This document shows positions 22,948 to 38,072 of a DNA stretch of 64,000 nt, piece by piece. The notes beneath the pieces are model-generated. The model saw only the letters and a program-made list of their open reading frames with translations, ran no database searches and was not told the origin of the DNA. How positions within the stretch are numbered: the stretch's first letter is position 1; the number at the start of each line of letters is the position of its first letter. The position numbers were made by a program, and so were the translations under genes. This DNA comes from Planctomycetaceae bacterium (GTDB lineage Bacteria; Planctomycetota; Planctomycetia; Planctomycetales; Planctomycetaceae): NCBI GenBank assembly GCA_028284485.1, contig JANQRQ010000011.1:86284-150283 (forward strand), written 5' to 3'.

Positions 22948-25614
22948 TCAATTCGGACCGAAGCGGGCGGGCGCTTGGGAGACGGCAGCTTCCGATGCGA
23001 GAGAATTCATACGCGACTGCAAGTAGGGAAAAAGTTCTTCTGCGGTAATATGCAGGTCGCGGTCTTCGTCGGCGCGACCGCTATAGGCGTCGATGATGGC
23101 TCGTGCAAAAAGCCCGACTCGCTCATCGGGAAGGCGTTGGCCGCGCTGATTCCTTTGGCTATTACCGATCGCGACGGTCGTTTTCAGCGATGTCGCAACG
23201 GATTGTAACATGTCCTCTGCCGAGGGCTGTCGGTCCAAATCCTGACCGGACCCCGAATGATTGCAGTCGAAGAGGAATGTCTTTGTGTTCGACGAGCATT
23301 GTTCGAGTTGTTCGACGAACCATTCAAGCGGGATGCCGGACTGTTCCATTTGATCCCAATTAAAGTCGCTGGCCGCCAGATAGACTCGGCCTTGAGAATC
23401 GGCATAGCCTTGCGTGCAAACGTAAACAACCAATTCGGTTTGGCTGCGTACTTGATCGAGCATGTCGGTGAATTGCTGCGTGACCGTTGATTTGTCCCCA
23501 TCGATCAGGACCAGCATGCGTTCGTTCTTGCAGGCGTATCGGTCTTCGAGAATTCCCGCGAAATCATTGACGTTGCGGGTGGCATAGGGAACGGGGCTCA
23601 GAAAACGATCTTGGAATGTCTGGTTTCCAATAACGATTGACCAACGATCATTGCGTTCGGGTCGGTTGGCATTAACGCCCGCTGCCAGGTAGGAATCGCC
23701 ATTCGAGCGGCTATAGGAAACATCGACGTTGTCGAATCGCCGCAGATCTTGTAACTCGACCTTGATATTGTTAATTCGAATATCGGTCAAAGGTGTTGCC
23801 GACATCGAAAGGCGTTGGCCATCCGGAGTCGAAACCACAAACATTTCGTTGGCTACTTGGACTTCATCAAGAACGCCGGACGTATTGATTTGGTCACGTG
23901 TGACCGTAATTTCTCGGATTTCCGTGTCGTAAAAAATTACAAGTCTGTCACCTAACGCCAGATCGTCCACTGGAATCTCTTCGATGTTGCCGTCCGCCAT
24001 GTTTCGCAGTTGCACACGGCAATCTTCGGCGATCTTTAATGTCGTGGCTTCGGCGTCGTCGCTGAGCCCGTAACCCAAAGTGAGTTCATTCTCCGAGACA
24101 TTCAGGCTCTCGAGAAAGCCGGTCATTTCCGTCATGCGCCGAATGCGCAGTTCGGTGATGGCGCGCTTCGAACCGCCTGGTGCCTCGACATGCTGTACTT
24201 CGACGTCGTCACCCGGTTCGACTTCGCGTAGTTCGAGTGTTTGCACTCCGTTGAGAACTAGTTTCGCCTGTTCAGGTACGGAAAGGGGGACATCGTCACG
24301 CGATTCACCCTCGTCGATAGCAATCACAACTTGACGATCGGGAAGGTTGATTTCGCGCACTCGTCCGGAGGAGACAACCGGTCGGGATGCGGTAATTGTA
24401 ATCGTCGCCTCACCCGCTTCGTTGAGTGATTTCTCAATTTCGAGGCGATCTCCGGGCAACAATTCCTGGACTAAGATGTTCTTGTCTTCATTCGTCAGGA
24501 AGATCCGTGGTCGGTCACCGACATCGAGAATGTCCGGGATTCCGTCCTGAAGATCTTCAATTCGGATCTGATTGCGATCAGCATAGACGTCGGTTACGAC
24601 CGCCAGGATCGTCGACTCTGCGTCATCGGGTGCGACGGAATCTCCACTCGGCAAGAACAGGGCGATTGCCGACAGAAGCAACGACGCGCAAAACGCAGAT
24701 ATCGCAATCATTCGCCGTTTTTTATCTTCGGGCGCAGCGGACTCGGTATCGTCCGATTTGGAAGCCTCTGGTTTCGATGGCGACTGGGCAGCTTTTTGAT
24801 CAACTTTGAGATCGACTAATGCCTCGTCGGCCGCTCGGTATCGTTTGGACTGATCCTTTTCCGTCAGCGTTTCGATAACGTGTGCCAAGTCTTCGGGGAC
24901 GCCTTGCAAAACCCGCGCAATTCGAGGGAGCTTACGGTCCGGTGCGGCTTGCCACATCATCCAAGCGACTTGTTGATTCCTACCGAATGCGCTTAAGCCC
25001 GGGAAAAGCGTCTCGAAGTTATCCCCGCACATCAGTTCGTAACTCGAGAATCCCAGGGAATACAAGTCGCTGGCAGGACCAACGTCGCCGAATTCGTCCG
25101 AAACGACTTCGGGAGCCATATACTTCGTCGTCCCTTTCAGCAAGCTCCCTTCGTCGTCGCTCACTCGTCGTGCTAAGCCAAAATCCCCAATTTTGATCCG
25201 TCGTCGGGCGTCGATCATCAAGTTTGTCGGCTTAATGTCGCCGTGGACGATCCCGCGGGCATGCAGGTACTTGAGCGCGCGCAGGCAGTGGGCGACGGTG
25301 GTGCGAAGCGAACGCAAGTCCATCGGGCGACCGTCCATTCGCTCGCTGAGGTTCGCTTGCATGAGCTCTGTCACCAGCCAGCCGCGGTCACGGACGATAT
25401 CGTAAACCGTGATGATATTCGGGTGTTGAAACGATGCCAGAAGCTGAGCCTCTTCCCAGTAGCGTTCGAGCTGAGCGGGATCGGCCAAGTATTGTTCGTG
25501 GATTTGTTTAATCGCCACTTCACGTTTGAGCTCGTTGTCCCGTGCGCGGTACACGGTTGCAAACGCACCCGTGCCTAACTTTTCCAACATTTCGTACCGC
25601 GAACTCGGCTTCAC
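22948..25614 (-). CDS. Ser/Thr protein kinase with an extracytoplasmic pseudo-caspase
   Basis: 888 residues. Kinase domain about 7-265: glycine loop GTGAFA, K36 in VAIK, catalytic loop HGDIKPTN (D126), DFG at 144-146 and APE at 167-169, so it is probably active. A membrane segment follows at about 301-321. Residues about 330-650 are repeated beta-rich modules of about 80 residues (each with a pattern like SGRVREINLPDRQVVIAID...VEPGDDVEV). Residues about 655-875 match the caspase (C14) fold: YATRNVNDFAGIL, VVYVCTQGYAD...YLAASDF, FLFDCNHSG. The catalytic His of SGHG is Gln735 and the Cys of DACHSG is Asn785 (a Cys sits one residue earlier), so proteolysis is unlikely. The GTG start has AGGAG 7 bases upstream. 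It is last in the Tad-like locus. Confidence 0.9.
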   Translation of the reverse strand: MKPSSRYEMLEKLGTGAFATVYRARDNELKREVAIKQIHEQYLADPAQLERYWEEAQLLASFQHPNIITVYDIVRDRGWLVTELMQANLSERMDGRPMDLRSLRTTVAHCLRALKYLHARGIVHGDIKPTNLMIDARRRIKIGDFGLARRVSDDEGSLLKGTTKYMAPEVVSDEFGDVGPASDLYSLGFSSYELMCGDNFETLFPGLSAFGRNQQVAWMMWQAAPDRKLPRIARVLQGVPEDLAHVIETLTEKDQSKRYRAADEALVDLKVDQKAAQSPSKPEASKSDDTESAAPEDKKRRMIAISAFCASLLLSAIALFLPSGDSVAPDDAESTILAVVTDVYADRNQIRIEDLQDGIPDILDVGDRPRIFLTNEDKNILVQELLPGDRLEIEKSLNEAGEATITITASRPVVSSGRVREINLPDRQVVIAIDEGESRDDVPLSVPEQAKLVLNGVQTLELREVEPGDDVEVQHVEAPGGSKRAITELRIRRMTEMTGFLESLNVSENELTLGYGLSDDAEATTLKIAEDCRVQLRNMADGNIEEIPVDDLALGDRLVIFYDTEIREITVTRDQINTSGVLDEVQVANEMFVVSTPDGQRLSMSATPLTDIRINNIKVELQDLRRFDNVDVSYSRSNGDSYLAAGVNANRPERNDRWSIVIGNQTFQDRFLSPVPYATRNVNDFAGILEDRYACKNERMLVLIDGDKSTVTQQFTDMLDQVRSQTELVVYVCTQGYADSQGRVYLAASDFNWDQMEQSGIPLEWFVEQLEQCSSNTKTFLFDCNHSGSGQDLDRQPSAEDMLQSVATSLKTTVAIGNSQRNQRGQRLPDERVGLFARAIIDAYSGRADEDRDLHITAEELFPYLQSRMNSLASEAAVSQAPARFGPN

Positions 25615-25867
25615 GTTCCGCTCCTGGTGTCGGTGTCATTCTGTCGCATGCTGCATTTTGATTCGCAGCGGGGCCGCATCTGCTCTCCTACTATTATGGC
25701 GAGCAATCTGCCCTGACAAAAGTGCTGGCTTTGGGGATTATTGTGCTCACTTGCCATCGATGCTGCACCCTAAAACCCTCTCCGAGCTACAACAATCGAC
25801 CGATTGGGATATTCCGGCAGGCGGAGAGGGATTGTACTCGATTTTCAGAAGCAACAGGTTGCCGCCC
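25615..25867. other. Spacer between the FHA gene and the kinase gene
   Basis: Together with repeat copy 5 this makes about 350 gene-free bases. The kinase ribosome binding site (AGGAG) lies at its left edge. Nothing else was recognised. Confidence 0.5.
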
Positions 25868-25972
25868 TGTAGCGTATGACGCTGACTTGAGGCCGCGACA
25901 ATCGAGTTGTGCTCTTTGATAGCTGGCTCAACTGAGCCAGAAACATCCACATGGAATCGTCAACCACCCTAG
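25868..25972 (+). repeat. Dispersed intergenic repeat, copy 5
   Basis: 105 bases, TGTAGCGTATGACGCTGA to CAACCACCCTAG, somewhat diverged. The TAG stop (25969-25971, minus strand) of the membrane FHA gene lies inside its CTAG end, as in copy 3. It separates that gene from the kinase gene and could end the transcript. Confidence 0.82.
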
Positions 25973-26883
25973 CGACTCAACAAAAGACCGATCAACTGTT
26001 TGAGCTTTTCATCGTCTTCGGGAGATCCCGTAATTCCCGTGTGCGGATTGATGTCCTCGGAATTGAGGATCCGGAGAACTGCCAGATAAGCATCCCGCTC
26101 CCCGGAATAGTCGCCCCGTGTGGCGTCACGCCGGGCATCACGCAGAAGTTGTTGATAGGGCAACAATTCGTCGGAATCAGAACCGTAAAACCGAACGATT
26201 TCGATTCGGGCCTGTGATCGATCCACAGGCGACGTCGTCGGACTCTCTAAGAAGAGTAACAATAAGCTACTTGCGAAACTGATCCCCAGGACGACATATA
26301 AGATAACCGCGCTTGAACCTTCGGACCGTTTTTCGACCGGTTTGCGAATCGAAGGTTCGATCAGGGATAGCTCGGGAAGTTCCCCGTCTTCACCGAGTTG
26401 AACGGTCGATTCTCCCGACGTATTCGTGATGAATTTCGCGACCTCACGAGTTGACTTACCGCCCGGACGTCGCCGACTTCGTTTCTTTCCTTTTCGGGGT
26501 GCCGGTGGCCTTTCCGTCTCTTTTCCGTTCGGTTGTTCGCCCGTATCGATCTGAACCGGGGCCGACGACTGATTGGCTTCGCCTTGATGGAACTCGAATG
26601 CCGTCCGTTTTCCCAGTCGAACCGTTCCACGGGATGGCAGCCAGACCCATCGTTCGGCAGGGATGACGCTACCATCGATTTCCACCGTCGACTCGATCGA
26701 TGTGTAAATGGCGTAGCGGTCGTTGCGGCGCACGATACTGGCCTGCCGATCGGCGAGCACCGTGTCTTCAAGAACGATTTGATTATCCGCGCTGCGGCCA
26801 ATGTGTACCAGATCGTCGGCAAGTTCAAACTCCTTGCCACGATCGGGGCCGGTTGTAAAGGTGATTTTTGCAGTCTCGGACAT
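25969..26883 (-). CDS. Membrane FHA-domain protein of the Tad-like locus
   Basis: 304 residues from the ATG at 26883; a GTG 13 codons upstream is possible, but the FHA domain begins right after the chosen start. The FHA domain (about 5-95) keeps HIGRSADNQIVLED, but the phosphothreonine-binding Ser/His pair is LADRQA, so binding may be altered. A basic Pro/Arg/Lys-rich linker follows (about 115-150), then one membrane segment (about 215-235, ILYVVLGISFASSLLLLFLE). The C-terminal part of about 70 residues is helical. It sits between the tadC gene and the kinase and is a candidate link between kinase and pilus machinery. Confidence 0.82.
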   Translation of the reverse strand: MSETAKITFTTGPDRGKEFELADDLVHIGRSADNQIVLEDTVLADRQASIVRRNDRYAIYTSIESTVEIDGSVIPAERWVWLPSRGTVRLGKRTAFEFHQGEANQSSAPVQIDTGEQPNGKETERPPAPRKGKKRSRRRPGGKSTREVAKFITNTSGESTVQLGEDGELPELSLIEPSIRKPVEKRSEGSSAVILYVVLGISFASSLLLLFLESPTTSPVDRSQARIEIVRFYGSDSDELLPYQQLLRDARRDATRGDYSGERDAYLAVLRILNSEDINPHTGITGSPEDDEKLKQLIGLLLSR

Positions 26884-27013
26884 AGAAACAGCGCCCGCGT
26901 TACATATTGCAGTCTGCGACACTCGAATCGAATCGATCCCACTTTGAAATCAGGGGTCGACCGGGTTGTTGGTTTCTTAACATCATTCGCCAGTATGTTC
27001 TCAAGACGCTGGG

Positions 27014-27967
27014 TTACGACAGAAAATCTTCATAAACAAAGCTAATGACAAACGGTCCCAGGATGATCAACACGGTCGAGGCCATTACCAAAATGGCCGG
27101 CAACAGCATTTTTACGCCGGCTTCACCCGCGATGGTTTCGGCCCGCTGTGTGCGTTTGACCCGCAAAACGTCGGCTTGCGTACGGAACAGTCGGGCCAAC
27201 GGTGTTCCCAGGTTTTCCCCCTGTACAATCGAGCCGATAATACTCGTGATTTCATCATCCTGTAATCGATCGCGCATACCTTCCAGAGCCGCAGTGCGGC
27301 TTTTTCCCATGCTGATTTCTCCGAGCACGCGACCGAATTCGGCACCTACGGGGTGATCGCGAAACTCCTCGACGGCTTCTTGCAGCGCCTGAATAAAAGT
27401 CGACCCCGCTTCCATCAGAAGTGTGAGAAGGTCGAGAAGAAACGGCATGCGGCGTTTGATTTCAAACAGACGGCGTTCCGCCTGGCGAGACAGCCCGAGC
27501 CGTAGGCCGTAAACCGTCAAAACCGTTGCCAAAACGGCAATGAGAATCCCGGCTGGGCCCATCATGTCCAGCCCGATGTACAAGTAAAATGGTGAGGCGA
27601 AGATCGCCATTAACTCAAACCGGGCCAAGTATTCCGGCGCCGTCCAGAATCTCGGTAGGCCGGCCGCGTGAATCTCCTGTTCGATTTTGGGGAGTTCATC
27701 GGCGAACAATCGTTCGTTCATTAAAGCCAGGGACTGAATAACCGGTTGGAACAATCGATAAAGGATACTGCGCTGACGCAGCTCGTTGATGCGGTTGACG
27801 TCGTATCGCCACTCGTTATCTTGCTCTAAATCCTCGGTATGCAGCGCGTTGACGAGCGTCAGTATCAACAGGGCCATTCCCCCGCCGACGCAGAAGCTTG
27901 CCAGAATCGGAAGCCAAAGCTCCACTGAGGAACTATTAGGCGGCGTTTGAGCAAGAATCGGAATCAT
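27014..27967 (-). CDS. tadC: TadC-like inner-membrane platform protein
   Basis: 317 residues from the ATG at 27967; a TTG start at 28045 would add 26 residues of low hydrophobicity. The type II secretion F domain lies in the middle to C-terminal half (RMPFLLDLLTLLMEAGSTFIQALQEAVEEF, then MGKSRTAALEGMRDRLQDDEITSIIGSIVQGENLGTPLARLFRTQAD). It is flanked by membrane segments at the N-terminus, centre and C-terminus (LLPAILVMASTVLIILGPFVISFVY). It forms the platform with TadB on which the ATPase acts. It follows tadB by 90 bases. Confidence 0.9.
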   Translation of the reverse strand: MIPILAQTPPNSSSVELWLPILASFCVGGGMALLILTLVNALHTEDLEQDNEWRYDVNRINELRQRSILYRLFQPVIQSLALMNERLFADELPKIEQEIHAAGLPRFWTAPEYLARFELMAIFASPFYLYIGLDMMGPAGILIAVLATVLTVYGLRLGLSRQAERRLFEIKRRMPFLLDLLTLLMEAGSTFIQALQEAVEEFRDHPVGAEFGRVLGEISMGKSRTAALEGMRDRLQDDEITSIIGSIVQGENLGTPLARLFRTQADVLRVKRTQRAETIAGEAGVKMLLPAILVMASTVLIILGPFVISFVYEDFLS

Positions 27968-28057
27968 CAAGATTGTCTCAGAAGAGTCGAGGAACGAATT
28001 CGCATTGTTCCGGAATCGAAAGGAATGTTTCTTCGGTGGTGGCAAGTCCTGTATTCA

Positions 28058-28903
28058 TCAAATCAACGGATTCAGAATCTTTCGGGCCCATAGATAGGCC
28101 ACCAAATTGAGTATCAACGAAATCCCCAAAATGATCTGGCCGAGGACCTCTGTAAAGAGCCGCTCGGTATTTACCGGGTCAATTAAGAAGTAATACATCA
28201 TCAAGATCGCGAAGGGTGCCAAAGCCATATAAAAAGCCGACGACCGGGCCTGGGCCGTTTCCGATTGGATTTTGCGTTCTAGTCGCTGCAATTCGCGGAC
28301 CGAATGTGCGATTCGTTCGACGGTTTCGTTGAGGCGTCCGCCGCTTTCTCGACTGGCTTCCATTGCGGCGGCAAATAGAGCGAAATTCTCACTGCGTAAC
28401 CGCACTTTTGCTTCGATAAGGCAGCGATCGAGCGGCTTGCCCAATTGATATTCTCCCACGATTTGCTGGAATTCCTGACAAATGGGTGGCGGACTTTGTT
28501 GTGCGAGAATCTCCAAGGCCTGCCCTAAAGACAGGCCCGCTTTAATCGCATTGGACAGCGACACCATCGCGTCGGCCAGTTGATCTTCAATCTGCAGTCG
28601 TCGATTCTCTGCCAATTGACGAACGCGGTACCAGGGCAAGCAAACGAGCAACATCGCCACGAGGACGCCTAAGATTGGTGCGCGTCCTACGACGGCAATC
28701 AGCAAAAGTACGATCGCAACAGCGACCAGCCAAGCGACGAGGTATTTGCGTAAGTTTTTTGTACCGACGCGCAATCGGCGTAGCTTGTCGCGGAGGTCGG
28801 TTTCCACAAAACCGAACGCTTCGGCAAGGTAATCGGAGGCGGCGTAGGACATGAGACCCGCCGCACAACCGGTTAGGGATATTCCCAGGACATATTCGAA
28901 CAT
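28058..28903 (-). CDS. tadB: TadB-like inner-membrane platform protein
   Basis: 281 residues with membrane segments near the N-terminus (two close together, about 53-90) and two near the C-terminus. The T2SSF domain lies between them ([28 protein letters not shown] ... [32 protein letters not shown]). It is paired with tadC as in other Tad loci, and starts 17 bases after the ATPase stop, which supports one transcript. Confidence 0.92.
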
Positions 28904-28920: not shown

Positions 28921-30801
28921 TCAGCCGTATAAGAACTCGAGCTTCAGCAGTTTTTTCTCGGTCAAGGAATCAATAAATGTCGGTAAGTACCCGGTCGGCA
29001 ACAGCGTGTTTCCCCCGCGGAGGTTGAACAAATCCGTCACGATGACTTCACCCCGCTCCTGGTTGAAACCTGCCACTTCCGAGATTTGCGTGACCATCCG
29101 TTTTCCGCCGGGCATCCGGCTGATTTGCACGACGATATCCAGCGCGGAAGAGATTTGTCGCTGGATGGAAACCACGGGCAAATCGACAGCCATCAAAACG
29201 AGGACCTCCAGTCGTTTTAAGACGTCGTCGGTATTGTTAGCGTGCACGGTCGTCATCGACCCGTCATGCCCCGTATTCATTGCCTGCAGCATATCGAGTG
29301 CTTCGGCGCCGCGACATTCGCCGACGATGATTCGATCGGGGCGCATACGCAGGGCGTTCTTGACAAGATCGCGAATGGTATATTCGCCGGCACCCTCGAC
29401 GTTCGGTGGTTTGCTTTCCAAGGGAACGACGTGATCTTGGTGCAACTGCAGTTCGGTCGTATCTTCGATCGTGACGATGCGTTCCTTCGGTGGGACAAAT
29501 CCGGAAAGGACGTTCAGCATCGTTGTTTTGCCCGTGCCCGTTCCACCACTGACCAGGACATTTCGGCGGTCGACGACGCAAGCCCGCAGAAACATGGCGG
29601 CAGCAGAACTGATGCTGCCGTTTTCGATAAGGTCCTCCATGGAAAAGCGGTGGACCGGGAATTTGCGGATCGTCAGGCAAGGCCCGCGGACTGCCAGCGG
29701 CGGGATGATCGCGTTAACTCTCGATCCGTCTGGTAATCGAGCGTCGACAAGTGGTTGGCTTTTGTCGATTCGGCGGCCGACCTGGGCGACAATGCGTTCG
29801 ATGATCGACTCGGTCACTTTGTCGGAAATAAAGCGTCGTCCGGAGAGTTCCACGACGCCATCGCGCTCGACGAAGATTTGATCGCTTTTGACGACCATGA
29901 TTTCCGTAATTGTCGGGGCTCGCAGTAAATCCTGCAAAGGGCCAAAACCAAAGGCCGTGTCTTTGAGGTCTTTTTTGAGGGTGCGCAGGATCAGGTACTT
30001 TTTCAATTCCTGATGCAAATGCGGGCGGACGAGCGGAAAGACCTCTTTGAACTCGGATTCGACCCGTTGTATGCGGGAGCTCAAATCGGGAAGTCGATCG
30101 AGCTTCAGCCGCTCAAAGATGAAATGCAATAGGTTGTGGAGTTCGCTCTCTCGTTCGGGAACCAATGTTGCGGGCACGTCGAATTCGTTGGCCGTCAATC
30201 GGGCGATCATGCTCAATTGATCTTTGTCGCTTTCGAGGATCAATTGGTTGACCGTCAGGTCACGAAGCGTCAGTCCGACGACCTCTTCCAGTAAGGCTTC
30301 GTTGCTGGCATCGAATAGCATGATTTCGCGACAAACGTCTTCGATGTTCTTTTCCAACATCAAGATGCTGTCCTGGTCGCCGAGGCGGTTCGATTCTAAC
30401 TCGTACAGGTCGAATCGTTCCAAAAGCTTGCGGTGCACTTTTAGTTCTAAATCCGACATGATCGACCGCAAATGGGCTTCCATTTCGGCACGGCTAATCG
30501 GTGCCGCTTCGTCGGACTCGAAGGTCAAGGAGAAGGGCCAAATTCGAACGGTATCGCCCGCTTCGAATTCAACGGACTCGCCTCCGACGACTTCCGCATC
30601 GCCGACGAGGCAGCTATTGAGTCCGATGTTTTCGAGATGGAGTTTTCCGTTGACCTGTTTGACAACGGCTTGATTCTTGGAGACCAACGGGCTGCGCAGC
30701 ACAATCGTGTTCGAATCGTCTCGACCGATGCGCACCTCCGGTTCATCGGTTTCGACGAGCGACCGCCGGCTGTCGTGGACTCGATTAAACCAAATTCTCA
30801 T
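28921..30801 (-). CDS. tadA: FHA-TadA/CpaF fusion: pilus or secretion ATPase
   Basis: 626 residues. The N-terminal FHA-like domain (about 1-95: [31 protein letters not shown]) precedes a full TadA/CpaF ATPase. Walker [11 protein letters not shown] lies at about 418-427, followed by the Asp-box region [16 protein letters not shown], Walker B ([16 protein letters not shown]) and the His box ([12 protein letters not shown]). Typical TadA proteins are about 420-480 residues without FHA. In the FHA part the family His is Gln, so phosphothreonine recognition is uncertain. The ATPase powers pilus assembly from the cytoplasmic face. The fusion, plus a membrane FHA protein and a kinase in the same locus, suggests control by phosphorylation. 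Confidence 0.93.
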
Positions 30802-30891: not shown

Positions 30892-31614
30892 CTATTCGAT
30901 CGCGGGGTGCAATAAGATTTGCACGCCGTTGAAATTCGTCATTTGCATCACTTCAGAAATGCGCTGGGCCTTGGGCTCCAATTGATCGTTTTCGATTTTC
31001 ACGCTGATGGCAATCGTATTTTCCGACCCGGCCGACAGCCCGGACGCGCGGTGGACTTCACTGCTGCCTTTCCGATTTCCCAATGCCAGGATGCGAAACG
31101 GTCCGATGATTTCTTCGGATCCCGTTTTTGGTGTCTGGCCAGGTCGACTGCCGGCAGTGATTCCGATCATGCTCGGTATACGAAAGGAAACTTCATCGCC
31201 TGGATTGACGTGTTGTGGGTTAAATGACCGGGCGTCAACCGGGAGCCACATGACACGCTCGTTTTCGCCGATCAGGTCGTTCAGTTCTTTGCTGGCCGGT
31301 GTTTTCAAATCCTGGTGCAGCAGGATTTCTCCACCTTGAAAGCTGCGTGTTGCCGGAAGGTCGATTAGCGTATCGAGGGCGTCCCATTTGACGGCGGTTT
31401 CGTCCAAACGACCCAGGTTGTCTTTGGGAATGTCAACCTTGACGAAATGTGCCTCTTTAAACCGATCGCCCAAGTTGATTTGCGCCTGCCTTTCGATTGC
31501 GACAAACGCTACTTTTTCTTTGTCGCGGGAAAGGCGGTGAATGTAGTACCAGTTGCAGACTGCACCAACGATACCGACGCAGGCGGCGATGACGACTCCC
31601 TGTATCCCTCTCAT
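30892..31614 (-). CDS. cpaB: CpaB-like pilus assembly protein
   Basis: 240 residues. An N-terminal membrane segment (about 5-22) is followed by an SAF-type domain (VEIPKDNLGRL-like, then ATRSFQGGEILLHQDLKTP) and a beta-rich C-terminal half with PVDARSFNPQHVNPGDEVSFRIP. CpaB/RcpC is a periplasmic component that works with the outer-membrane secretin in Flp pili. No secretin gene is beside it, which is unusual. AAGG lies upstream of the ATG. Confidence 0.82.
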   Translation of the reverse strand: MRGIQGVVIAACVGIVGAVCNWYYIHRLSRDKEKVAFVAIERQAQINLGDRFKEAHFVKVDIPKDNLGRLDETAVKWDALDTLIDLPATRSFQGGEILLHQDLKTPASKELNDLIGENERVMWLPVDARSFNPQHVNPGDEVSFRIPSMIGITAGSRPGQTPKTGSEEIIGPFRILALGNRKGSSEVHRASGLSAGSENTIAISVKIENDQLEPKAQRISEVMQMTNFNGVQILLHPAIE

Positions 31615-31804: not shown

Positions 31805-32767
31805 TTAATTTGAAGAATAAATGTGAATTATGCCGGTTGGCGATGACTGCGGATTTTCATGAATCTGCAGGTATGCGCTGCCATGAGGTTCTTGTCGGTT
31901 GTCGCGACACTCCAAAACATAGGCTTCTGTGCCGACTCGATCGTTGGAATGCACTTCCCAGCCCTGTTCGGTAAACCACGTCCGAAAGGCATTTACGCCA
32001 TCGGCGGTTTTTCCGTCCCAGCGAAAGACGGAGAAGTGACCACCTTGTCGATTCGCAATCGAAACGACAGTTTGACATTTGTCGGGCAGCGGGGACGCCA
32101 TACCCCATTCTGGAATCGGTGTGTCCGCAGCCGCGGGTTGAAGAATGTAAAGTGTCCATTTCTCGTTGCCCGATGGACATGCCATGCCACAGCAAATCAC
32201 ACGTGCGTCGAGTGTTCGCCCCGTTTCTCCCGTTTTTTGTTTGACTCCAATAACCATCGCAAGCGGGTGTTCGATTTGAAACAACTGACCGCCGCCGGGA
32301 TGTTCGTCGATGGGAGAGATTCCGTCCAATTGGTCGAGCAATCGAATCTCAGCCGGTTCGGCATCGAACCGCGGATAATCGGTCGAGTTCAAAATGCGGC
32401 GGCATTCGTTACGTAACGATTCCTGAGCGGAATCTGGAGTGCCGGTGATCTCTTGCCTGAGAATGGTTGTCGGCATTTTGCCAAAAGAGAGCAGTAATGG
32501 TTCGTTGGATTGGGCAAAGTCCAAAAATACCGGTGTCGCTGGCGGGCCCATCGGAGTGCCGGCACCGGTGGGTGTCTCAACGGACCACCACTCGGCAAGT
32601 TGATTTCCGACAGTTAGCAGTCCGATGGCCGCGATCCCGATCGCCACAAGATCGAGCGTGCGGCGGCGCACGCGTTGCGAAAGGCGACCCAAGCCGATTG
32701 GTTTCTCGGCATGTTCGCTCGACTTAATCGCTGGTGATTCGTCAGTATTGCTTTTCGCCGCCGACAT
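31805..32767 (-). CDS. Unknown bitopic membrane protein of the Tad-like locus
   Basis: 320 residues, family not recognised. There is a polar N-terminus of about 38 residues, one membrane segment (about 39-57, LVAIGIAAIGLLTVGNQ) and a periplasmic part with two halves. The second half contains four Cys (CCGMAC and two singletons) and repeated WTLYILQP/FSVFRWDG-like strands. It lies between cpaB and the first TadE-like gene in the same orientation, with 28 bases to the upstream gene, so it is likely part of the machine. A pilotin or periplasmic adaptor would fit the position, but nothing in the sequence proves it. Confidence 0.75.
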   Translation of the reverse strand: MSAAKSNTDESPAIKSSEHAEKPIGLGRLSQRVRRRTLDLVAIGIAAIGLLTVGNQLAEWWSVETPTGAGTPMGPPATPVFLDFAQSNEPLLLSFGKMPTTILRQEITGTPDSAQESLRNECRRILNSTDYPRFDAEPAEIRLLDQLDGISPIDEHPGGGQLFQIEHPLAMVIGVKQKTGETGRTLDARVICCGMACPSGNEKWTLYILQPAAADTPIPEWGMASPLPDKCQTVVSIANRQGGHFSVFRWDGKTADGVNAFRTWFTEQGWEVHSNDRVGTEAYVLECRDNRQEPHGSAYLQIHENPQSSPTGIIHIYSSN

Positions 32768-32795: not shown

Positions 32796-33809
32796 TTATT
32801 GCAGCAATTGGTTGGAAAATCGCTGCAACTGGTCGATCAGCCTTTGCAGTGTTTCGCGCTGAGTGAGCAGCTGCGCACGAGTATCAGCAGGGAGGTTCGG
32901 GTCCTGCAGCAGATTTTCGATATCACGAAGCATCGATTGGTACATGCGCAGGAAGTCGGTTGTCAGCCGCCCGGGGACTCCGGCATCCCGAAGTGATCGG
33001 CGTGGAGGTTGACGGCCTTCAATGCGTTCAATTAAGGGTTCGACGACGTCAGTTTGAAGACGGTCTAAATCGACTGTGCAAAATGCCCCGGCATTGACAC
33101 GAGGGTGATAGTCTCGATAGCGGCCATAGAACGAACGAATCTCTTCGTCTCGATCGAGGACGAATAGTGCCGGCTTATCGGGATTCTCGACAATGTTCAT
33201 GGCGGCTTGGGTGTACCGCATTGTTTCGTCCGGTAGCCATTGGCCGAGGTTGAAGTCGAATAAGAAAGGAACGCGCCGCGTCACATTCGACCGAATTCTC
33301 ATAGACCAGAACTGCCAGCGCGTCCCACCGAGGACGTCGAGTCTGCGTTCGAAATCGAATTGTCGAGGGGGAATTTCTCCGAGCATCGGGAAGCCTCGTT
33401 CGATGCCGGCCAGTCCCTGCATCGTTCCGGCAGTCATATCCATGATTTGCACGCGAATCGGGAGGCTGTGGTCGGTATCTGGTACGGTAACGCTCGGCCC
33501 TCGCACGATTTGAAATTCGGCATAGGGGTCGGTGGCGATGATGTCGGGCGGGTTACCTTGCAACCGCATTTCGGCGGACTCGGGCCATCCCAGTGGGTTC
33601 GGGTCGTTGTTGCCGGTCCCTGGTGGAATGGCCCTCCATACGGCCTGGCGCGCGTTCGTGAGTGTCCGAACCTTCCACGACGCCGCGTTGCCAAACACGA
33701 TCATCAGCCCCATGACGAACAACATGATCGGCAGGCCCAGCACCAACTCGAGCGGCGCTAATCCTGCCCGGGCTTTCGGAGTTTCAATTTGTCGTCGGCG
33801 AGACCGCAT
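32796..33809 (-). CDS. TadE-like pseudopilin
   Basis: 337 residues. The N-terminal signal resembles a Flp-type prepilin: basic leader, Gly16, then LAPLE with Glu at +5 of the predicted mature chain, then a hydrophobic stretch (LVLGLPIMLFVMGLMIVFG). It fits cleavage by the TadV-type peptidase encoded at 36632. The long globular part ends in a helical, Gln/Leu-rich tail (about 285-337). It is much longer than classical TadE (about 150-200). 22 bases separate it from the upstream TadG-like gene. Confidence 0.8.
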   Translation of the reverse strand: MRSRRRQIETPKARAGLAPLELVLGLPIMLFVMGLMIVFGNAASWKVRTLTNARQAVWRAIPPGTGNNDPNPLGWPESAEMRLQGNPPDIIATDPYAEFQIVRGPSVTVPDTDHSLPIRVQIMDMTAGTMQGLAGIERGFPMLGEIPPRQFDFERRLDVLGGTRWQFWSMRIRSNVTRRVPFLFDFNLGQWLPDETMRYTQAAMNIVENPDKPALFVLDRDEEIRSFYGRYRDYHPRVNAGAFCTVDLDRLQTDVVEPLIERIEGRQPPRRSLRDAGVPGRLTTDFLRMYQSMLRDIENLLQDPNLPADTRAQLLTQRETLQRLIDQLQRFSNQLLQ

Positions 33810-33831: not shown

Positions 33832-35433
33832 TTAGTGAGTATTGATTTCTTGCAGGTCTTGTGTCGTGACGTTATTCAGCGGGAGTAACGGGCGTCGAAT
33901 GGGGCCTCCTTCTCGAGGCCCTGGTTGTGATTGCAAGACTTCCAAGATCATGGGGCTTGTGGCGGGAACAAGTTTCGCCGTCCAGTTTTGGTTGAAAGTG
34001 TCCCAGCGAGTCGGCCAGTTTTCTTGGGGCCAGCGTTCATCCTCGGCACGCGGATTCCACGGAGACTCTGGTGCTGGCGGTGCTGTTATGCCCGTGTCGA
34101 ATCCGAAAGTACCACCCAGATTCACATCGTCGTTTCGCCGTGGCCGATTGGCGTACCGCAGCACGCGGCGCGGACGCGGCACGAAGACCGAAACCTGAGC
34201 AAATGTGATGGCATCGCTTTCTTCGGCAATCGGGTTTTGGAATAGTCCCGGGCCGATTTCCGGAAGCCCAGCGCGATACACAACTCCCAGAAAATTGAAA
34301 TTGCGCTCCAGGTAATCGTTCACCTCGGCGTATTGGCTATTCGCCAGCATTTGGCGGATGCCTGTCCCTGACTCGGTTTCGCGGATGATCCAGGGGATAT
34401 TGGAAAGCGGGTATTCTTCGATCAGCAATTTGTCGAGTTGTGCACAAGTGGCGATACGCCACAGATTTCCAAATTGCGAAAACTTGGCCTCGGTAAAAAA
34501 CAGACGGAGTTTGCTGTCGTTCCAGCGGTTCAAGTAATGCCGGGCCCAGCGGCGGCGTTCGGCGACGCCCCTGGTCAAATAGGCCTCTGGGTCGAGAACT
34601 TGGGCATAATCGGAGTAGAGGGGCGAGGGATTAACAACCGGAAGCGTTCGCCGCTGCGGAATATATTCGTTAAAAGCCTCGGATTGTTCCTCGATGGGGT
34701 CCGCATCTTCAGCCTGCTGGCGGATACGCCACAGGACCCCTTGCTGCGGACCGCGTCCACTGCGATCGGTTGGCTCGCCTGTTGTCGTGTCAGATCGATC
34801 GCCCCCTTGGCGCAAGGCCACTTCTTCGGCTGCTTGTGCAGCGAGGCGGGGGATGGTGTGAACCAATTCGTTTTGAAACTCAGGGATGAGACGTGCTTCG
34901 AGAATATATTCAAATACCGGCAATGCCAGCTCCGAAGCGGCAGCCGTCATTTCTCCGAACGCGGTAACGGCTTCCTGCTCGAGCGGAACCTTTGCGATAA
35001 TGGCTGGTCCCAGGTCGCGGAATTTTTCAAATTCCGACATCGACAGCATTTGCCCCGCGTTCTCCCAAGCTTCCAAGATTTGGGGAGCAAATTGTTCTGC
35101 ATTGCGATCCCGTCCTTCGCGAAGGAAGGCCGTGATGGCGAACACATCGCACATCAGGTGATTGGTAAATGCAATACCGTTCATCCCGCGTGCCAAAACA
35201 ACTCCGCCGGAGTAGGCTGAGGCATCTGCGGCATTTTGCATTTTGATTTTGTCGTCGATATGTCGGCCGACGTTGACGACCATCACCAGCAGCATGGTGA
35301 ACATCAATAACGCAAAGACCGTTACGATACTCATCGTTCCACGCTGGTCGCGGTGCAGGGATAGCACAAAGCCTTTGATCGCTCGCAGGATTAAGCCGCT
35401 GCGCTGTCGTTTGTGATGGTTGTGGTTGTTCAT
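33832..35433 (-). CDS. TadG-like pilus-associated protein
   Basis: 533 residues from the ATG at 35433; a TTG two codons earlier is also possible. A basic N-terminus ends in DQRG, followed by a hydrophobic segment (about 36-57, TVFALLMFTMLLVMVVNVGR) and KIKMQNAADASAYSGGVVLARGMN, the pattern of Tad-associated TadG proteins (normally ...QNAADAAAL...). There is no Glu at +5 after the Gly, so it may stay membrane-anchored. The remaining ~450 residues have no recognised domain and no obvious von Willebrand factor motif. Confidence 0.8.
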   Translation of the reverse strand: MNNHNHHKRQRSGLILRAIKGFVLSLHRDQRGTMSIVTVFALLMFTMLLVMVVNVGRHIDDKIKMQNAADASAYSGGVVLARGMNGIAFTNHLMCDVFAITAFLREGRDRNAEQFAPQILEAWENAGQMLSMSEFEKFRDLGPAIIAKVPLEQEAVTAFGEMTAAASELALPVFEYILEARLIPEFQNELVHTIPRLAAQAAEEVALRQGGDRSDTTTGEPTDRSGRGPQQGVLWRIRQQAEDADPIEEQSEAFNEYIPQRRTLPVVNPSPLYSDYAQVLDPEAYLTRGVAERRRWARHYLNRWNDSKLRLFFTEAKFSQFGNLWRIATCAQLDKLLIEEYPLSNIPWIIRETESGTGIRQMLANSQYAEVNDYLERNFNFLGVVYRAGLPEIGPGLFQNPIAEESDAITFAQVSVFVPRPRRVLRYANRPRRNDDVNLGGTFGFDTGITAPPAPESPWNPRAEDERWPQENWPTRWDTFNQNWTAKLVPATSPMILEVLQSQPGPREGGPIRRPLLPLNNVTTQDLQEINTH

Positions 35434-35484
35434 AGACAAATACGACTCATCGCTATTGGCGTTCTGCCAAGACCAACGTACTTC

Positions 35485-36564
35485 CTACTCAAAGCCTGAC
35501 GGCAGTGTGCGTGACTGCAGGTATGGTACGACTGATTTGATCCCTTCCGTGGTAATTGTGGCGGAGGCACGAATATCGGTGACGTAAAGTTGACGATCGT
35601 TGCCTGTCGTTGTCGGACGGATTCGATCACGGGTTTGGTCGGGAAGGCCGTCTGCCCGCACGAGGCGAGATGACAAAAATCTGGCTGGCCCAGGGAGCAG
35701 CGCGAAATGGTGTGTGACAGTCAGCGTTAACGGGTCCTGCCAGCCGATCTCATGAGGATTCCAAGATCGAACGACCTCGCCTTCGGGTGTACGGAGCACT
35801 TCGCCATCCTCAAGTCGAACAGGGACACGAGGATTGTAAGTTGGCCCACGTAACGTATTCTTGTCGACAAATGAAATGAGCACGGTTGTGTTAAGAAAAC
35901 TATATGACAGCTTATTGGCTAGTCGTTGCGGAATGCGTTCGTTCGACCGAGACGATGGAACGGTTGCGGCGTACATTCGTTGCGTCGCATCAATCACCGG
36001 GCTAATTTGTAGTCCGTTGTCGTAATTCCAATCGTGCGACGGTGCCAGCGGAGCACAGGCCATCGCGGCGGCCGTAAATATGCGCTCGTACTTTCGTGTG
36101 CGGTCGATAAATCCGCTGGTCCCGTTATACTCCCAGACATCGTAGTCTTGAGATTCGGGCGACACGTACTGTTGGTCATATGCCAGCATGACCGGATTGT
36201 CCTCGCGGATCGGGGCGGGCAGTACATTTTCGGCTTCATCATCCATGTCAAAGTCGCCCAAAATTTGTGCAGGAATCCACACCGATGCTGATCGCGCTGC
36301 GGCGTAGGCAGCGTAATGCACGACCATCGTCGCAATCATCAGTTGGCTGATTTGGACGATAAACAGCACAATCATGATGAAGACCGGCATGGTGAGCACA
36401 AAGCTAAGAGATTGCACACCACCTTGCTGGCATTTGTGCAAACGCGCAATGCGTCGCCACTTGATCTGAGCGCCGCTTATTCGGCAAACAAGCACCAGCA
36501 GCACCAAGGCTACGGCGAGTGCCAAGATTAACGGCCAAATTGCCTCAATAAGGGCACGGTTCAA
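35485..36564 (-). CDS. TadE-like protein with two membrane segments
   Basis: 359 residues. The first hydrophobic helix is at about 9-28. A TadE-type segment follows at about 48-85 (KCQQGGVQSLSFVLTMPVFIMIVLFIVQISQ then MVVHYAAYAAARSASV, where the A-A-Y-A-A-A-R-S-A pattern is typical of TadE), and the rest is a periplasmic domain. The start is TTG with GGAGAAG about 5-7 bases upstream (CGGAGAAGTTCATTG), which supports it. It is the third pseudopilin-like gene in a row. Confidence 0.8.
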   Translation of the reverse strand: MNRALIEAIWPLILALAVALVLLVLVCRISGAQIKWRRIARLHKCQQGGVQSLSFVLTMPVFIMIVLFIVQISQLMIATMVVHYAAYAAARSASVWIPAQILGDFDMDDEAENVLPAPIREDNPVMLAYDQQYVSPESQDYDVWEYNGTSGFIDRTRKYERIFTAAAMACAPLAPSHDWNYDNGLQISPVIDATQRMYAATVPSSRSNERIPQRLANKLSYSFLNTTVLISFVDKNTLRGPTYNPRVPVRLEDGEVLRTPEGEVVRSWNPHEIGWQDPLTLTVTHHFALLPGPARFLSSRLVRADGLPDQTRDRIRPTTTGNDRQLYVTDIRASATITTEGIKSVVPYLQSRTLPSGFE

Positions 36565-36631: not shown

Positions 36632-37171
36632 TCAGATTGCAAAGTCAATGTACCGGCCGACGACAATGCAGACTGCAACAAAACCAGCAGGCGCGAGAAA
36701 CAGGCCTCGCTGTAATGGCTCGCGTTCTGTTTTAGTTAAAGGGACCCAACCTTTCGAACGAAAGACGAGAACCAGATGGTGGCCGATGCCGCCGATCATC
36801 TTGATGATGCCCGTCGTCCAGATGAGGTAGGCAACTGCCATGATGCTTCCCAGCACGAATGTCCACAACAAAGCCTCGATCCCTCGATATGGACCGAGAA
36901 AGGCACCGATCATTGCCATCAATTTGACATCGCCACCACCCATTGGAAACAACACGTAACAAAGCAACATAACCGATCCACAAATCGTGAATCCCGCAAT
37001 GCTGCTTTGAATGGCATCCCAGCCTTGTCCCAGACTTCCCTGGCCTAATGCGTTAACGAGAACGCCTGCTAGCATTCCGGGGTAAGTGGTCCAGTTGTAA
37101 ATCGACTGTTTTCTTAAGTCAGTGGCAGCGGCGATTAACAGGAAGATTAACAACAATGCATACGCCACCAT
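36632..37171 (-). CDS. tadV: Prepilin peptidase, TadV/CpaA type
   Basis: 179 residues with about five or six membrane segments and no methylase domain, as in TadV/CpaA. Both catalytic aspartates of the A24 family are visible: D in AATDLRKQSIYNW (about residue 17) and the GxGD motif in GGGDVKLMAMIGAFLGP (about 77). It processes Flp-type prepilins on the cytoplasmic side. The genes around it encode at least three proteins with plausible cleavage sites. Confidence 0.93.
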   Translation of the reverse strand: MVAYALLLIFLLIAAATDLRKQSIYNWTTYPGMLAGVLVNALGQGSLGQGWDAIQSSIAGFTICGSVMLLCYVLFPMGGGDVKLMAMIGAFLGPYRGIEALLWTFVLGSIMAVAYLIWTTGIIKMIGGIGHHLVLVFRSKGWVPLTKTEREPLQRGLFLAPAGFVAVCIVVGRYIDFAI

Positions 37172-37301: not shown

Positions 37302-37409
37302 TACAGCGTATGACGCTGACTTATGGCCGCGACCATCGCGTTTTGTTTTATCGATTGCCGGCTCCCACGAGACAGAAACGCCCACGAGATAAAGTATCCC
37401 GCTCTCGAG
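37302..37409 (+). repeat. Dispersed intergenic repeat, copy 6
   Basis: 108 bases, TACAGCGTATGACGCTGA to CCCGCTCTCGAG. It includes TGGCCGCGACCATCGCG and CAGAAACGCCCACGAGA. It lies 26 bases downstream of the Flp pilin stop (minus strand), with the same end toward that gene as in the other copies, and separates the pilin from the peptidase gene. It could lower downstream transcription or protect the pilin mRNA. Confidence 0.87.
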
Positions 37410-37435
37410 TAGCGACTCTTACCAGTCGGATCTAA

Positions 37436-37651
37436 TCAGTTTCCGCTTCGGACTCGCTCGCCTTCAGTTTCGAGATCTTCGAGTCCCTGGTTGAAATAGT
37501 TCTTGATGCGAGGCCAACCAAATTTGATCAGAAAGATCAAAATCGGAATGGCGATCGCCCCGATGATGAGGATCGTTTCGAGGCTCACGGCCCCACGCTG
37601 ATCCTGATGGACTTGTTTCAATAGTTTTTTCAGAGATGGCGATTTTTGCAT
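37436..37651 (-). CDS. flp: Flp-type major pilin
   Basis: 71 residues from the ATG at 37651 (AAGG about 9 bases upstream; a TTG three codons earlier is possible). A basic leader ending DQRG is followed by AVSLE, with Glu at +5 of the mature chain. Then comes a 19-residue hydrophobic helix (TILIIGAIAIPILIFLIKF) and a short polar tail. This is the layout of Flp/Fap pilins, whose mature form is about 50 residues. It is the probable filament subunit of the locus. Confidence 0.85.
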   Translation of the reverse strand: MQKSPSLKKLLKQVHQDQRGAVSLETILIIGAIAIPILIFLIKFGWPRIKNYFNQGLEDLETEGERVRSGN

Positions 37652-37811
37652 GGTTGGCAACCTTGTCGTGGACCTTCGGCAATATTCTGCCAGGTCGTCC
37701 CATACAGAATTCGCCCAATCCTAAGAAACGCGAATTCCGGCCCGAATTACACCAATTGAGTTGATCGTTACTAAATCGTTCCTACTGTTCTGGCCGTGAA
37801 TGATAAAGCCG

Positions 37812-38072
37812 TCACATGAATGGCCACGATATCATCACAGAGAGCATTTCAAATACCAGCGAGATCATGCGTCTTCCGGCGGGAACGACGAACGCTACCA
37901 GCGGCAGAATGATCCCTAAAACGAGGATGTAGTCGAGTGTAGCAGCACCGGATGGAAAGTTTTCGCTCGGCGATTCAGTGACATCGGTAAGACGTTTCAT
38001 CGCGTTGGCGTTTTCAAATGTCGTTGGTTGCACAGCCGATTCGACAGGATCGGCCCATCGGTACACCCCCAC
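37812..38072 (-). CDS. Flp-like small protein with Asp at +5
   Basis: 86 residues if started at the GTG at 38072, 62 if at the ATG at 38000; neither has a strong ribosome binding site. After PSG (Gly42 in the long form) comes AATLD, so the +5 residue is Asp rather than the usual Glu. A hydrophobic helix follows (YILVLGIILPLVAFVV) and then a second hydrophobic stretch (ISLVFEMLSVMISWPFM). It is the first gene of the Tad-like locus in transcription order. It may be a minor pilin or an unprocessed partner of the pilin. Confidence 0.65.
   Translation of the reverse strand: MGVYRWADPVESAVQPTTFENANAMKRLTDVTESPSENFPSGAATLDYILVLGIILPLVAFVVPAGRRMISLVFEMLSVMISWPFM

What the first reader, a model, noticed from the sequence alone, without database searches (positions are those of the whole stretch)
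22948..38072. Tad/Flp-like machine wired to FHA domains and a kinase, without a local secretin
Thirteen consecutive minus-strand genes encode pilins, peptidase, three TadE/TadG-like proteins, an unknown protein, CpaB, FHA-TadA, TadB, TadC, a membrane FHA protein and a transmembrane kinase. Secretin (CpaC/RcpA), TadZ/CpaE and TadD are missing. The locus may be a phosphorylation-gated pilus or secretion system that crosses the envelope in another way. This is my best candidate for an undescribed system in the window.
Basis: partly seen in the sequence, partly recalled or inferred. Interest (0 to 1): 0.75.

Follow-up and report, generated by a model that had tools for sequence, protein, structure and literature searches.

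The report
Kinase-wired Tad pilus without its secretin
This stretch of a planctomycete genome encodes a Tad-type pilus machine whose motor protein carries a domain of a kind that binds phosphorylated proteins, and all 55 sampled genomes with a close form of this motor also encode one matching membrane kinase, so the machine is likely switched on by phosphorylation and may reach the cell surface without the usual outer-membrane gate.

Summary
Thirteen minus-strand genes (22948-38072) encode two Flp-like pilins, a prepilin peptidase, three TadE/TadG-like proteins, an unknown protein, CpaB, FHA-fused TadA, TadB, TadC, a membrane FHA protein and a membrane Ser/Thr kinase. The 150-kb contig has no secretin.

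It is a conserved, mostly planctomycete lineage. Of 397 genomes of the class, 55 have both a close FHA-TadA and the kinase, 1 only the kinase, none only that motor, though the genes are often unlinked; 15 more have a divergent FHA-TadA without this kinase type. New points: (1) the kinase carries a caspase-like outer domain whose catalytic Cys is lost in 27 of 32 sequences, and other lineages keep the kinase but swap this domain; (2) CpaB lacks the C-terminal tail that docks the secretin in Pseudomonas; (3) relatives encode a second, FHA-less TadA in the locus (here on contig C48).

FHA-fused TadA is known (class III CpaF, KilF). CpaC-type secretins exist elsewhere in this genome, so a secretin in trans is not excluded. 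Best reading: a phosphorylation-gated Tad machine, a new variant of a known kind. Activity and exit route are untested.

The parts
22948..25614 (-). Transmembrane Ser/Thr kinase, 888 aa; last gene of the cluster
   Evidence: Pkinase 1.3e-49; one TM segment at residues 303-321; active-site residues kept in most of 32 sequences
24829..25596 (-). Kinase domain (residues 7-262), predicted cytoplasmic
   Evidence: Pfam PF00069
23005..23640 (-). Degenerate caspase-like domain (residues 659-870), predicted extracytoplasmic; catalytic His is Gln and Cys is Asn here
   Evidence: NCBIfam NF047832 9e-22, below its cut-off; Peptidase_C14 in 20 of 32 sequences, not in this one; residue counts
25969..26922 (-). 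FHA domain + one TM segment + short extracytoplasmic part (SctD/TagH-like topology)
   Evidence: FHA 4.6e-4, Yop-YscD_cpl 1e-7; TM 206-224; weak SctD and TagH matches
27014..28045 (-). TadC platform protein
   Evidence: T2SSF 3.5e-14
28058..28903 (-). TadB platform protein
   Evidence: T2SSF 5.7e-22
28921..30801 (-). FHA-TadA motor ATPase, 626 aa
   Evidence: T2SSE 2.9e-61 and FHA 1e-8; in a 31-row group with support 99
30541..30735 (-). N-terminal FHA domain of TadA (residues 23-87) with conserved Gly26, Arg27, Ser41, Asn58, Asn62
   Evidence: conservation in the 120 sequences held
30892..31614 (-). Short CpaB/RcpC-like protein, about 13 residues after the RcpC domain
   Evidence: RcpC 0.0057; pilus_cpaB 9.8e-5; tail measurement
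31805..32767 (-). Conserved unknown single-TM protein between TadE and CpaB
   Evidence: no Pfam or NCBIfam match; 19-29% orthologues in the same place
32796..33809 (-). TadE-like pseudopilin (weak)
   Evidence: TadE 0.061; conserved position
33832..35439 (-). TadG-like protein
   Evidence: PF13400 Tad 9.8e-8
35485..36564 (-). TadE-like protein
   Evidence: TadE 5.4e-7
36632..37171 (-). TadV-type prepilin peptidase
   Evidence: Peptidase_A24 3e-19
37436..37651 (-). Flp-like pilin, 71 aa
   Evidence: read, translated; Flp_Fap 0.047, below cut-off; 53-79% orthologues next to the peptidase in six loci
37812..38072 (-). Second Flp-like pilin, up to 86 aa (true start may lie further in)
   Evidence: no Pfam match; orthologues 27-60% in the same place

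Best explanation
This is a conserved planctomycete Tad-type pilus machine that is likely switched on by phosphorylation: a membrane kinase would read a signal at the cell envelope through its outer domain, phosphorylate a threonine in the machine, and the FHA domains of the TadA motor and of a small membrane protein would bind that mark to assemble or start the motor. Shown by the calls: gene content and order, conservation, near-perfect co-occurrence of the kinase with the close form of FHA-TadA, conserved kinase active-site residues, conserved residues of the TadA FHA domain, swapped kinase ectodomains, loss of the caspase-type Cys in 27 of 32 sequences, and a CpaB without the tail used for secretin docking in Pseudomonas. 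Inferred: that the kinase phosphorylates this machine, that the FHA domains bind the product, that the ectodomain is the sensor, that a second FHA-less TadA (contig C48 here) works with it, and that the filament leaves without a dedicated CpaC secretin.
For: Co-occurrence: of 397 class genomes, 55 have both a close FHA-TadA (residues 1-230, E<=1e-60) and the stalk-bearing kinase, 1 only the kinase, 0 only that motor, 341 neither; within genus g224 the genomes seen split into five with both, one kinase-only and seven with neither. Linkage: 17 of 27 TadA-centred loci have a kinase on the same strand within range, against 1 of 22 control TadA loci (p 1.9e-5); 19 of 39 kinase-centred loci hold other Tad/FHA genes of the system within the stretch fetched. 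In one Phycisphaerae group the kinase sits between TadE and TadG, so the association survives rearrangement. Kinase residues: beta-3 Lys in 29 of 32, HGD in 31, DFG in 32. TadA FHA residues: Gly26, Arg27, Asn58, Asn62 in 120 of 120 and Ser41 in 111 (the 120 are the nearest of 740 matches, the window's included). Ectodomain exchange with the kinase kept: caspase-like, TPR, FGE-sulfatase plus Ig repeats, CarboxypepD_reg. Short CpaB: 5-45 residues after the RcpC domain in the 36 of 40 lineage loci where the profile found it, 41-443 in 18 FHA-TadA loci outside the lineage with a secretin nearby, p 3.5e-9; the docking role of that region is from PMC12307814 (passages).
Against: No phosphorylation, binding or filament was observed. 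Fifteen of the 397 genomes have a divergent FHA-TadA N-terminus (E between 1e-60 and 1e-8) and none of them passed the kinase criterion; the query was this ectodomain, so kinases with other outer domains would not show. One genome (G474) has the kinase without the motor. No phosphatase stood out by eye downstream of the kinase in 10 loci. In genus g7 (3 of 32) the catalytic Lys is Arg. The window's membrane FHA protein has Ala where FHA domains usually have Ser (read directly; rule recalled) and matches FHA weakly. Nine further TadA-centred loci, fetched largely because the kinase lay elsewhere, lack it nearby; with them linkage is 17 of 36 (p 9e-4). Genomes share ancestry, so the Fisher p of the co-occurrence (4e-67) overstates independence. 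Against secretin independence: CpaC-type secretins exist in this genome; one lies 4.4 kb from the cluster's pilin genes in G403 and one 8.7 kb from FHA-TadA in G666; lineage locus L109 has a secretin 3.6 kb upstream and still a short CpaB (17).
Confidence: 0.6

Rival explanations
1. An ordinary Tad pilus with phosphorylation control that exits through a secretin encoded elsewhere (CpaC on contig C242 or the orphan CpaC on C241). The missing secretin is only a split locus.
For: The genome holds two CpaC-type secretins (PF13629 plus Secretin), one beside CpaB and a CpaE-like protein. Ordinary planctomycete TadABC loci also mostly lack a nearby secretin: 17 of 20 controls. 50 of 55 FHA-TadA genomes have PF13629, and two more (G674, G672) have a CpaC-like secretin without it. 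A C241-type secretin lies 4.4 kb from the pilin genes in G403 and 8.7 kb from FHA-TadA in G666.
Against: The C241 type is also present in many genomes without FHA-TadA and gave no match at E<=1e-40 in several with it (which scored only two candidates per genome). CpaB lacks the docking tail, unlike the genome's own CpaB on C242 (about 156 residues after the domain) and C12 (about 99). In G528, G540 and G650 no secretin was classed as CpaC-type, though a few fragments there were not classed and at 96-97% completeness 3 of 55 could be assembly gaps.
Confidence: 0.4
2. A Kil-like contact-dependent killing device, as in Myxococcus, with the kinase as the prey-contact sensor.
For: KilF is an FHA-fused CpaF and Kil clusters hold further FHA proteins (PMC8460266, passages and section 11); the sister group of this lineage in the ATPase tree is three Myxococcota FHA-TadA (support 87).
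Against: Kil has a secretin (KilC) needed for prey lysis; none is at this locus. The Kil authors report it only from delta-proteobacteria and with a single ATPase. KilF itself was not in the tree. No toxin or tip gene was recognised, but none was searched for.
Confidence: 0.12
3. A degenerate Tad remnant whose motor was captured by a signalling pathway and no longer builds a filament.
For: In G087 and G105 FHA-TadA stands with no Tad neighbour recognised by tblastn in the 20-kb stretch.
Against: In many genomes the full set including pilins, peptidase, pseudopilins and platform proteins is kept together.
Confidence: 0.05

Closest known systems
Tad/Flp pilus (type IVc pilus; Caulobacter Cpa, Pseudomonas Tad)
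   Same: TadA, TadB, TadC, CpaB, TadE/TadG, prepilin peptidase and Flp-like pilins in one cluster
   Different: No secretin and no CpaE/TadZ found at the locus; CpaB without the long C-terminal tail; FHA on the motor; a membrane kinase and FHA protein in the cluster; a second TadA in relatives
Kil system of Myxococcus xanthus (PMC8460266, PMC12075869; passages)
   Same: FHA-fused CpaF-type ATPase and extra FHA proteins; the nearest ATPases outside the lineage are from Myxococcota
   Different: Kil has secretin KilC and a single ATPase; the word kinase does not occur in the main text of PMC12075869
Class III CpaF with N-terminal FHA (PMC12019362; passages)
   Same: Same domain order of the motor
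   Different: Described as mostly betaproteobacterial; no linked kinase is mentioned in the passages seen; all 14 Pseudomonadota FHA-TadA rows have a secretin 1.1-1.6 kb upstream of the ATPase match
Threonine phosphorylation pathway of T6SS (PpkA/PppA/Fha, names recalled) and kinase/FHA-bearing T7SS variants (PMC11217815; passages)
   Same: Membrane kinase with an outer domain plus an FHA protein or FHA-bearing ATPase in a secretion locus
   Different: Here on a Tad machine; no phosphatase recognised
Bacterial caspases / Peptidase_C14 (EACC1-associated type, NF047832)
   Same: Sequence family of the kinase's outer domain
   Different: Fused to a membrane kinase and predicted to lie outside the cytoplasm; catalytic Cys lost in 27 of 32, both residues lost in the window

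Membership tests
Tad/Flp pilus, diderm type | TadA ATPase with TadB and TadC | tested here: met
Tad/Flp pilus, diderm type | Prepilin peptidase and TadE/TadG pseudopilins | tested here: met
   one of the three TadE-like calls is weak (0.061)
Tad/Flp pilus, diderm type | Flp pilin | tested here: inconclusive
   Flp_Fap 0.047 for one, none for the other; conserved place next to the peptidase
Tad/Flp pilus, diderm type | CpaB/RcpC | tested here: inconclusive
   RcpC 0.0057 and pilus_cpaB 9.8e-5, both below cut-off; place and the Phycisphaerae orthologue (RcpC 3.2e-8, above cut-off) speak for it
Tad/Flp pilus, diderm type | Secretin CpaC/RcpA in the locus | tested here: not met
   none on contig C118; none in 39 of 40 lineage loci in the stretch held
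Tad/Flp pilus, diderm type | TadZ/CpaE in the locus | tested here: not met
   only receiver-domain proteins match CpaE in the window; a CpaE-like protein exists on C242
Tad/Flp pilus, diderm type | TadD pilotin | not tested
   TPR lipoproteins were not searched
Kil system | FHA-fused ATPase | tested here: met
   KilF description from PMC8460266
Kil system | Secretin KilC with the cluster | tested here: not met
   but Kil genes lie in two clusters, so a distant secretin would not exclude it
Kil system | ATPase groups with KilF | not tested
   KilF sequence not at hand; Myxococcota FHA-TadA are sister with support 87
Kil system | Contact-dependent killing | not testable with these tools
   needs an experiment
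Class III CpaF | N-terminal FHA, linker, CpaF ATPase | tested here: met
   class definition in PMC12019362
Threonine phosphorylation pathway of secretion systems | Membrane Ser/Thr kinase plus FHA partner in one locus | tested here: met
Threonine phosphorylation pathway of secretion systems | Cognate phosphatase | tested here: inconclusive
   ORF starts downstream of the kinase in 10 loci read by eye only, none obvious; no profile search made
Caspase family (Peptidase_C14) | Caspase fold by sequence | tested here: met
   Peptidase_C14 in 20 of 32 at E<=0.01; NF047832 9e-22 in the window, below cut-off; the low-confidence model did not match caspases among the 50 rows shown
Caspase family (Peptidase_C14) | His-Cys catalytic dyad | tested here: not met
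   window Gln/Asn; both kept in 4 of 32

The most novel reading that the evidence does not exclude
A secretin-independent, receptor-kinase-driven Tad machine: exchangeable receptor domains outside the membrane (pseudo-caspase, FGE-type, TPR) switch on, through threonine phosphorylation and two FHA docking sites, a two-ATPase pilus motor whose CpaB has lost its secretin dock, so that the filament works within the planctomycete periplasm or leaves by a non-CpaC route.
Probability: 0.27. Interest if true: 0.82.

Novelty: new variant of a known kind. Interest (0 to 1): 0.62.

Why it matters
FHA-fused Tad motors are known, but what would phosphorylate for them is not: in the passages seen the Kil authors suggest that the FHA proteins take part in a signalling cascade without naming a kinase (PMC8460266). 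This lineage offers a kinase that travels with the close form of the motor in 55 of 55 sampled genomes, including genomes where the two are unlinked, which makes phospho-gating of a type IV filament directly testable. It also offers a diderm Tad machine whose CpaB has lost the region that docks the secretin in Pseudomonas, bearing on how Tad filaments cross an envelope. A link to the pili-like fibres and crateriform structures of planctomycetes (PMC5394234, passages) is a speculation; no pilus genes are named in the passages seen.

Tried and rejected
Orphan CpaC on C241 as the dedicated partner secretin: rejected as a general partner, since it is common in genomes without FHA-TadA, but it lies near the cluster in two genomes.

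Genome-wide absence of CpaC as proof of secretin independence: five of 55 genomes lacked PF13629, but G674 and G672 hold CpaC-like secretins without that domain; the other three (G528, G540, G650) fit ordinary assembly gaps, and secretin fragments G528 C71 and G650 C434 (second match) found no BLAST class, so I give this little weight.

FHA fusion as the novel feature: rejected; it is widespread and published.

Missing secretin as unique to this lineage: 13 of 33 FHA-TadA rows outside the lineage also showed none within 12 kb in the stretch held; 7 of the 13 are labelled Verrucomicrobiota, Lentisphaerota or Kiritimatiellota. My secretin profile was built from planctomycete sequences and may miss theirs. 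Two lineage places outside the 40-locus count have a secretin near: G666 (L292) and G403 (L298).

CpaB tail as a clean marker: it is not. Six Bacillota/Actinomycetota CpaB have short tails (6-27), but others without a nearby secretin run from 36 up to 282, and 3 of 10 non-FHA loci with a secretin have 35-46.

Homologue searches for the kinase ectodomain and the unknown protein in the protein database found only themselves; orthologues came from genome searches.

Structure models: unknown protein pLDDT 47; kinase ectodomain pLDDT 53, pTM 0.33, from two-row alignments. Foldseek listed OB/cold-shock/CusF-like and other matches for the latter, no caspase among the 50 shown. I use neither as evidence; one orthologue has a CusF_Ec match in the stalk.

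Defence role: the PADLOC rows shown are kinase models for the window's kinase and a caspase model for two ectodomains; neighbourhoods were not scanned for defence genes.

My errors on the way: the query for the second pilin was out of frame; from then on it is right, and only one search is cited for it. Greedy ORF lists of GC-rich loci were misleading and were replaced by tblastn maps.

Dropped before counts: L119 as a copy of L109; 7 FHA-TadA loci outside the lineage without a secretin (tails 37-49) left out of the CpaB test, and 4 lineage loci (L097, L098, L100, L115) where the profile found no CpaB; 22 of 142 rows left out of the tree by hand to thin it (near copies, second hits in a locus, some monoderm and proteobacterial rows), so 9 of the 40 lineage loci were placed by similarity and not by the tree; kinase-centred loci left out of the 27-locus linkage count to avoid circularity; the 9 TadA-centred loci reported apart.

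Full report
What is there. The 13 genes of the finding are real, on one strand, in the stated order. The weak calls are the pilins (Flp_Fap 0.047 for one, nothing for the other), CpaB (RcpC 0.0057; pilus_cpaB 9.8e-5) and one TadE (0.061); their identity rests also on conserved position. The pilin nearer the peptidase lies at 37436-37651. The contig holds no secretin, and only receiver-domain proteins in the window match CpaE. On the other strand upstream lies an HDOD-GGDEF gene, and downstream a Dabb-domain gene.

The rest of the genome. The genome (7.7 Mb, 363 contigs, 91% complete) has a second FHA-Tad locus on contig C194 (TadE, TadG, TadE, CpaB, FHA-TadA, cut by the contig end), a locus with peptidase, CpaB, CpaC and a CpaE-like protein on C242, an orphan CpaC on C241, a CpaB-TadA-TadB-TadC locus on C12 and a lone TadA on C48.

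Conservation. Neighbourhoods show the order pilins - peptidase - TadE - TadG - TadE - unknown - CpaB - FHA-TadA - TadB - TadC - FHA - kinase, whole or in part, in many planctomycetes. In one Phycisphaerae group the kinase lies between TadE and TadG of the same cluster. Of 39 kinase-centred loci, 19 hold other genes of the system within the stretch fetched, one of these only a piece of the FHA gene at a contig end. Of 27 TadA-centred loci, 17 have a kinase in range on the same strand; of 22 control TadA loci (20 canonical plus this genome's C12 and C48), 1 has a kinase anywhere in the stretch (p 1.9e-5). Nine further TadA-centred loci, mostly fetched because the kinase lay elsewhere, have none; with them it is 17 of 36 (p 9e-4).

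Co-occurrence. In 397 genomes of the class I took the close FHA-TadA as present if residues 1-230 matched at E<=1e-60 (55 genomes) and the kinase as present if its stalk/ectodomain query (residues 299-888) matched at E<=1e-20 starting before query residue 263 (56 genomes). 55 have both; only G474 has the kinase alone; none has the close motor alone. I chose the thresholds after seeing the lists; the next motor match is at 1.9e-30. Between 1e-60 and 1e-8 there are 15 more genomes with a divergent FHA-TadA N-terminus, G121 among them, and none of these passed the kinase criterion; kinases with other outer domains, as in Phycisphaerae, would escape that query. The genomes are related, so the p value is not a probability of function, but within genus g224 the genomes seen split into five with both, one with the kinase only and seven with neither. 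This is the strongest evidence that the kinase belongs to the machine even where the genes are dispersed, as in G266, G291, G546 and G638.

The kinase. It has a kinase domain, a TM segment (found in 30 of 32 sequences by hydropathy, two segments in one of them) and a stalk leading to a caspase-like domain. The window's own protein matches the EACC1-associated caspase family over residues 659-870 at 9e-22, below the curated cut-off; 20 of 32 sequences match Peptidase_C14 at E<=0.01 (the window's does not), and the profile of all 32 finds metacaspase-4 at 2.5e-5 and MALT1 at 1.3e-4 in the PDB. The catalytic His is kept in 25 of 32, the Cys in 5 and both in 4; the window has Gln and Asn. In other lineages the outer part holds TPR repeats, Ig repeats plus an FGE-sulfatase domain, or CarboxypepD_reg. 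A constant kinase with exchanged outer domains fits a receptor; that it senses anything is inferred.

The FHA domains. In the TadA FHA domain Gly26, Arg27, Asn58 and Asn62 are invariant in the 120 sequences held and Ser41 is kept in 111; these are the nearest of 740 matches, so much is conserved there anyway. That Arg and Ser contact phosphothreonine is recalled knowledge of FHA domains. The membrane FHA protein matches FHA weakly in the window and better in two Phycisphaerae; it resembles SctD and TagH weakly.

The ATPase tree. Of 120 rows, planctomycete FHA-TadA and one MAG labelled Deltaproteobacteria form one group of 31 (support 99); the sister is three Myxococcota FHA-TadA with a secretin nearby (support 87) (quick method, SH-aLRT). 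A separate group of 14 (support 98) holds a second, FHA-less TadA, 12 of them within the same locus as an FHA-TadA; in L095, L114, L301 and L304 it lies directly upstream of the pilin genes. Two of the 14 (L112, L174) are long branches of unsure place. The C48 gene of this genome belongs to the group. A two-ATPase Tad machine is thus suggested, but here the second gene is unlinked.

The exit. Of 40 loci of the lineage, 39 show no secretin within 12 kb of TadA in the stretch held, which is short on one side in some (L109 is the exception; G666 and G403, outside these 40, have one near). Of 33 FHA-TadA rows outside the lineage 20 have one, among them all 14 Pseudomonadota rows, and 13 do not. 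CpaB of the lineage ends 5-45 residues after the RcpC domain in 36 loci, against 41-443 in 18 secretin-bearing FHA-TadA loci outside it (p 3.5e-9). Six Bacillota/Actinomycetota CpaB have 6-27, but the marker is not clean: other loci without a nearby secretin run up to 282, and three non-FHA loci with a secretin have 35-46. The genome's own CpaB on C242 and C12 have about 156 and 99. In Pseudomonas the region after D2 (linker and hairpin) is needed for RcpA binding (PMC12307814, passages). This points to a CpaB that does not dock a CpaC secretin. Against: ordinary planctomycete TadABC loci also lack a neighbouring secretin in 17 of 20 cases, CpaC-type genes exist in trans in 52 of the 55 genomes, and L109 pairs a secretin with a short CpaB.

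Known and new. FHA-fused CpaF is class III of PMC12019362 (passages) and KilF of PMC8460266 (passages and section 11), where an upstream signalling cascade was proposed without a named kinase in the passages seen. Kinase/FHA control is proposed for T7SS variants (PMC11217815, passages). A paper on planctomycete kinases (PMC11032199, term search only) mentions FHA once and no pilus. A search for planctomycete plus Tad pili plus FHA domain found no paper; related searches listed none whose title or abstract start describes this system, within an open-licence library only. I therefore call it a new variant of a known kind, and rate phospho-gating as likely and secretin independence as open.

Noticed in passing
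own genome contig C194, L053:1-6591: A second, divergent FHA-Tad locus (FHA-TadA about 47% identical), cut by the contig end before TadB; whether it has its own kinase is unknown.
   Followed up: partly
L057:6754-8853 (contig C241); L298; L292: An orphan CpaC-type secretin without recognised Tad neighbours here; a relative lies 4.4 kb upstream of the FHA-Tad pilin genes in G403 and 8.7 kb from FHA-TadA in G666.
   Followed up: partly
L052:7752-8975 (contig C48): Lone FHA-less TadA that belongs to a 14-row group of which 12 sit in the same locus as an FHA-TadA: a candidate second motor ATPase.
   Followed up: partly
L207, L208, L209 (genus g7): Kinase orthologues in which the catalytic Lys is Arg while the caspase-like domain keeps both His and Cys.
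   Followed up: no
L134:5842-7890, L160:5852-7777: In two FHA-TadA loci outside the lineage the CpaB frame runs on into long beta-rich repeats (beta-flower, DUF3659 or flagellar-hook-like domains) after the RcpC domain.
   Followed up: no
L182:7112 onward (Acidobacteria MAG): A TadA without detected FHA is followed by an FHA protein and a kinase about 5 kb downstream, so kinase wiring may reach beyond this lineage.
   Followed up: no
window 38609-40726 (+): HDOD-GGDEF protein divergently placed next to the first pilin gene; a possible c-di-GMP link.
   Followed up: no
window 9349-10107 (-): Another FHA protein (FHA 4.9e-19, Yop-YscD_cpl 6.9e-15), about 13 kb from the cluster and not part of it as far as seen.
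   Followed up: no
L097, L098 (G087, G105): FHA-TadA at 71% identity with no Tad neighbour recognised in the 20-kb stretch, although both genomes have a kinase match elsewhere.
   Followed up: no
L059:6322-10485 (contig C17) and matches: A giant secretin of about 1300-1500 aa recurs in many of the planctomycete genomes searched and is one of the few secretins found in G528 and G540.
   Followed up: partly
L233 and L262 (G291:C1:6672100-6711900): In G291 the unlinked kinase lies about 15 kb from a CpaB-CpaC-CpaE locus of the C242 type; whether this is chance was not tested.
   Followed up: no
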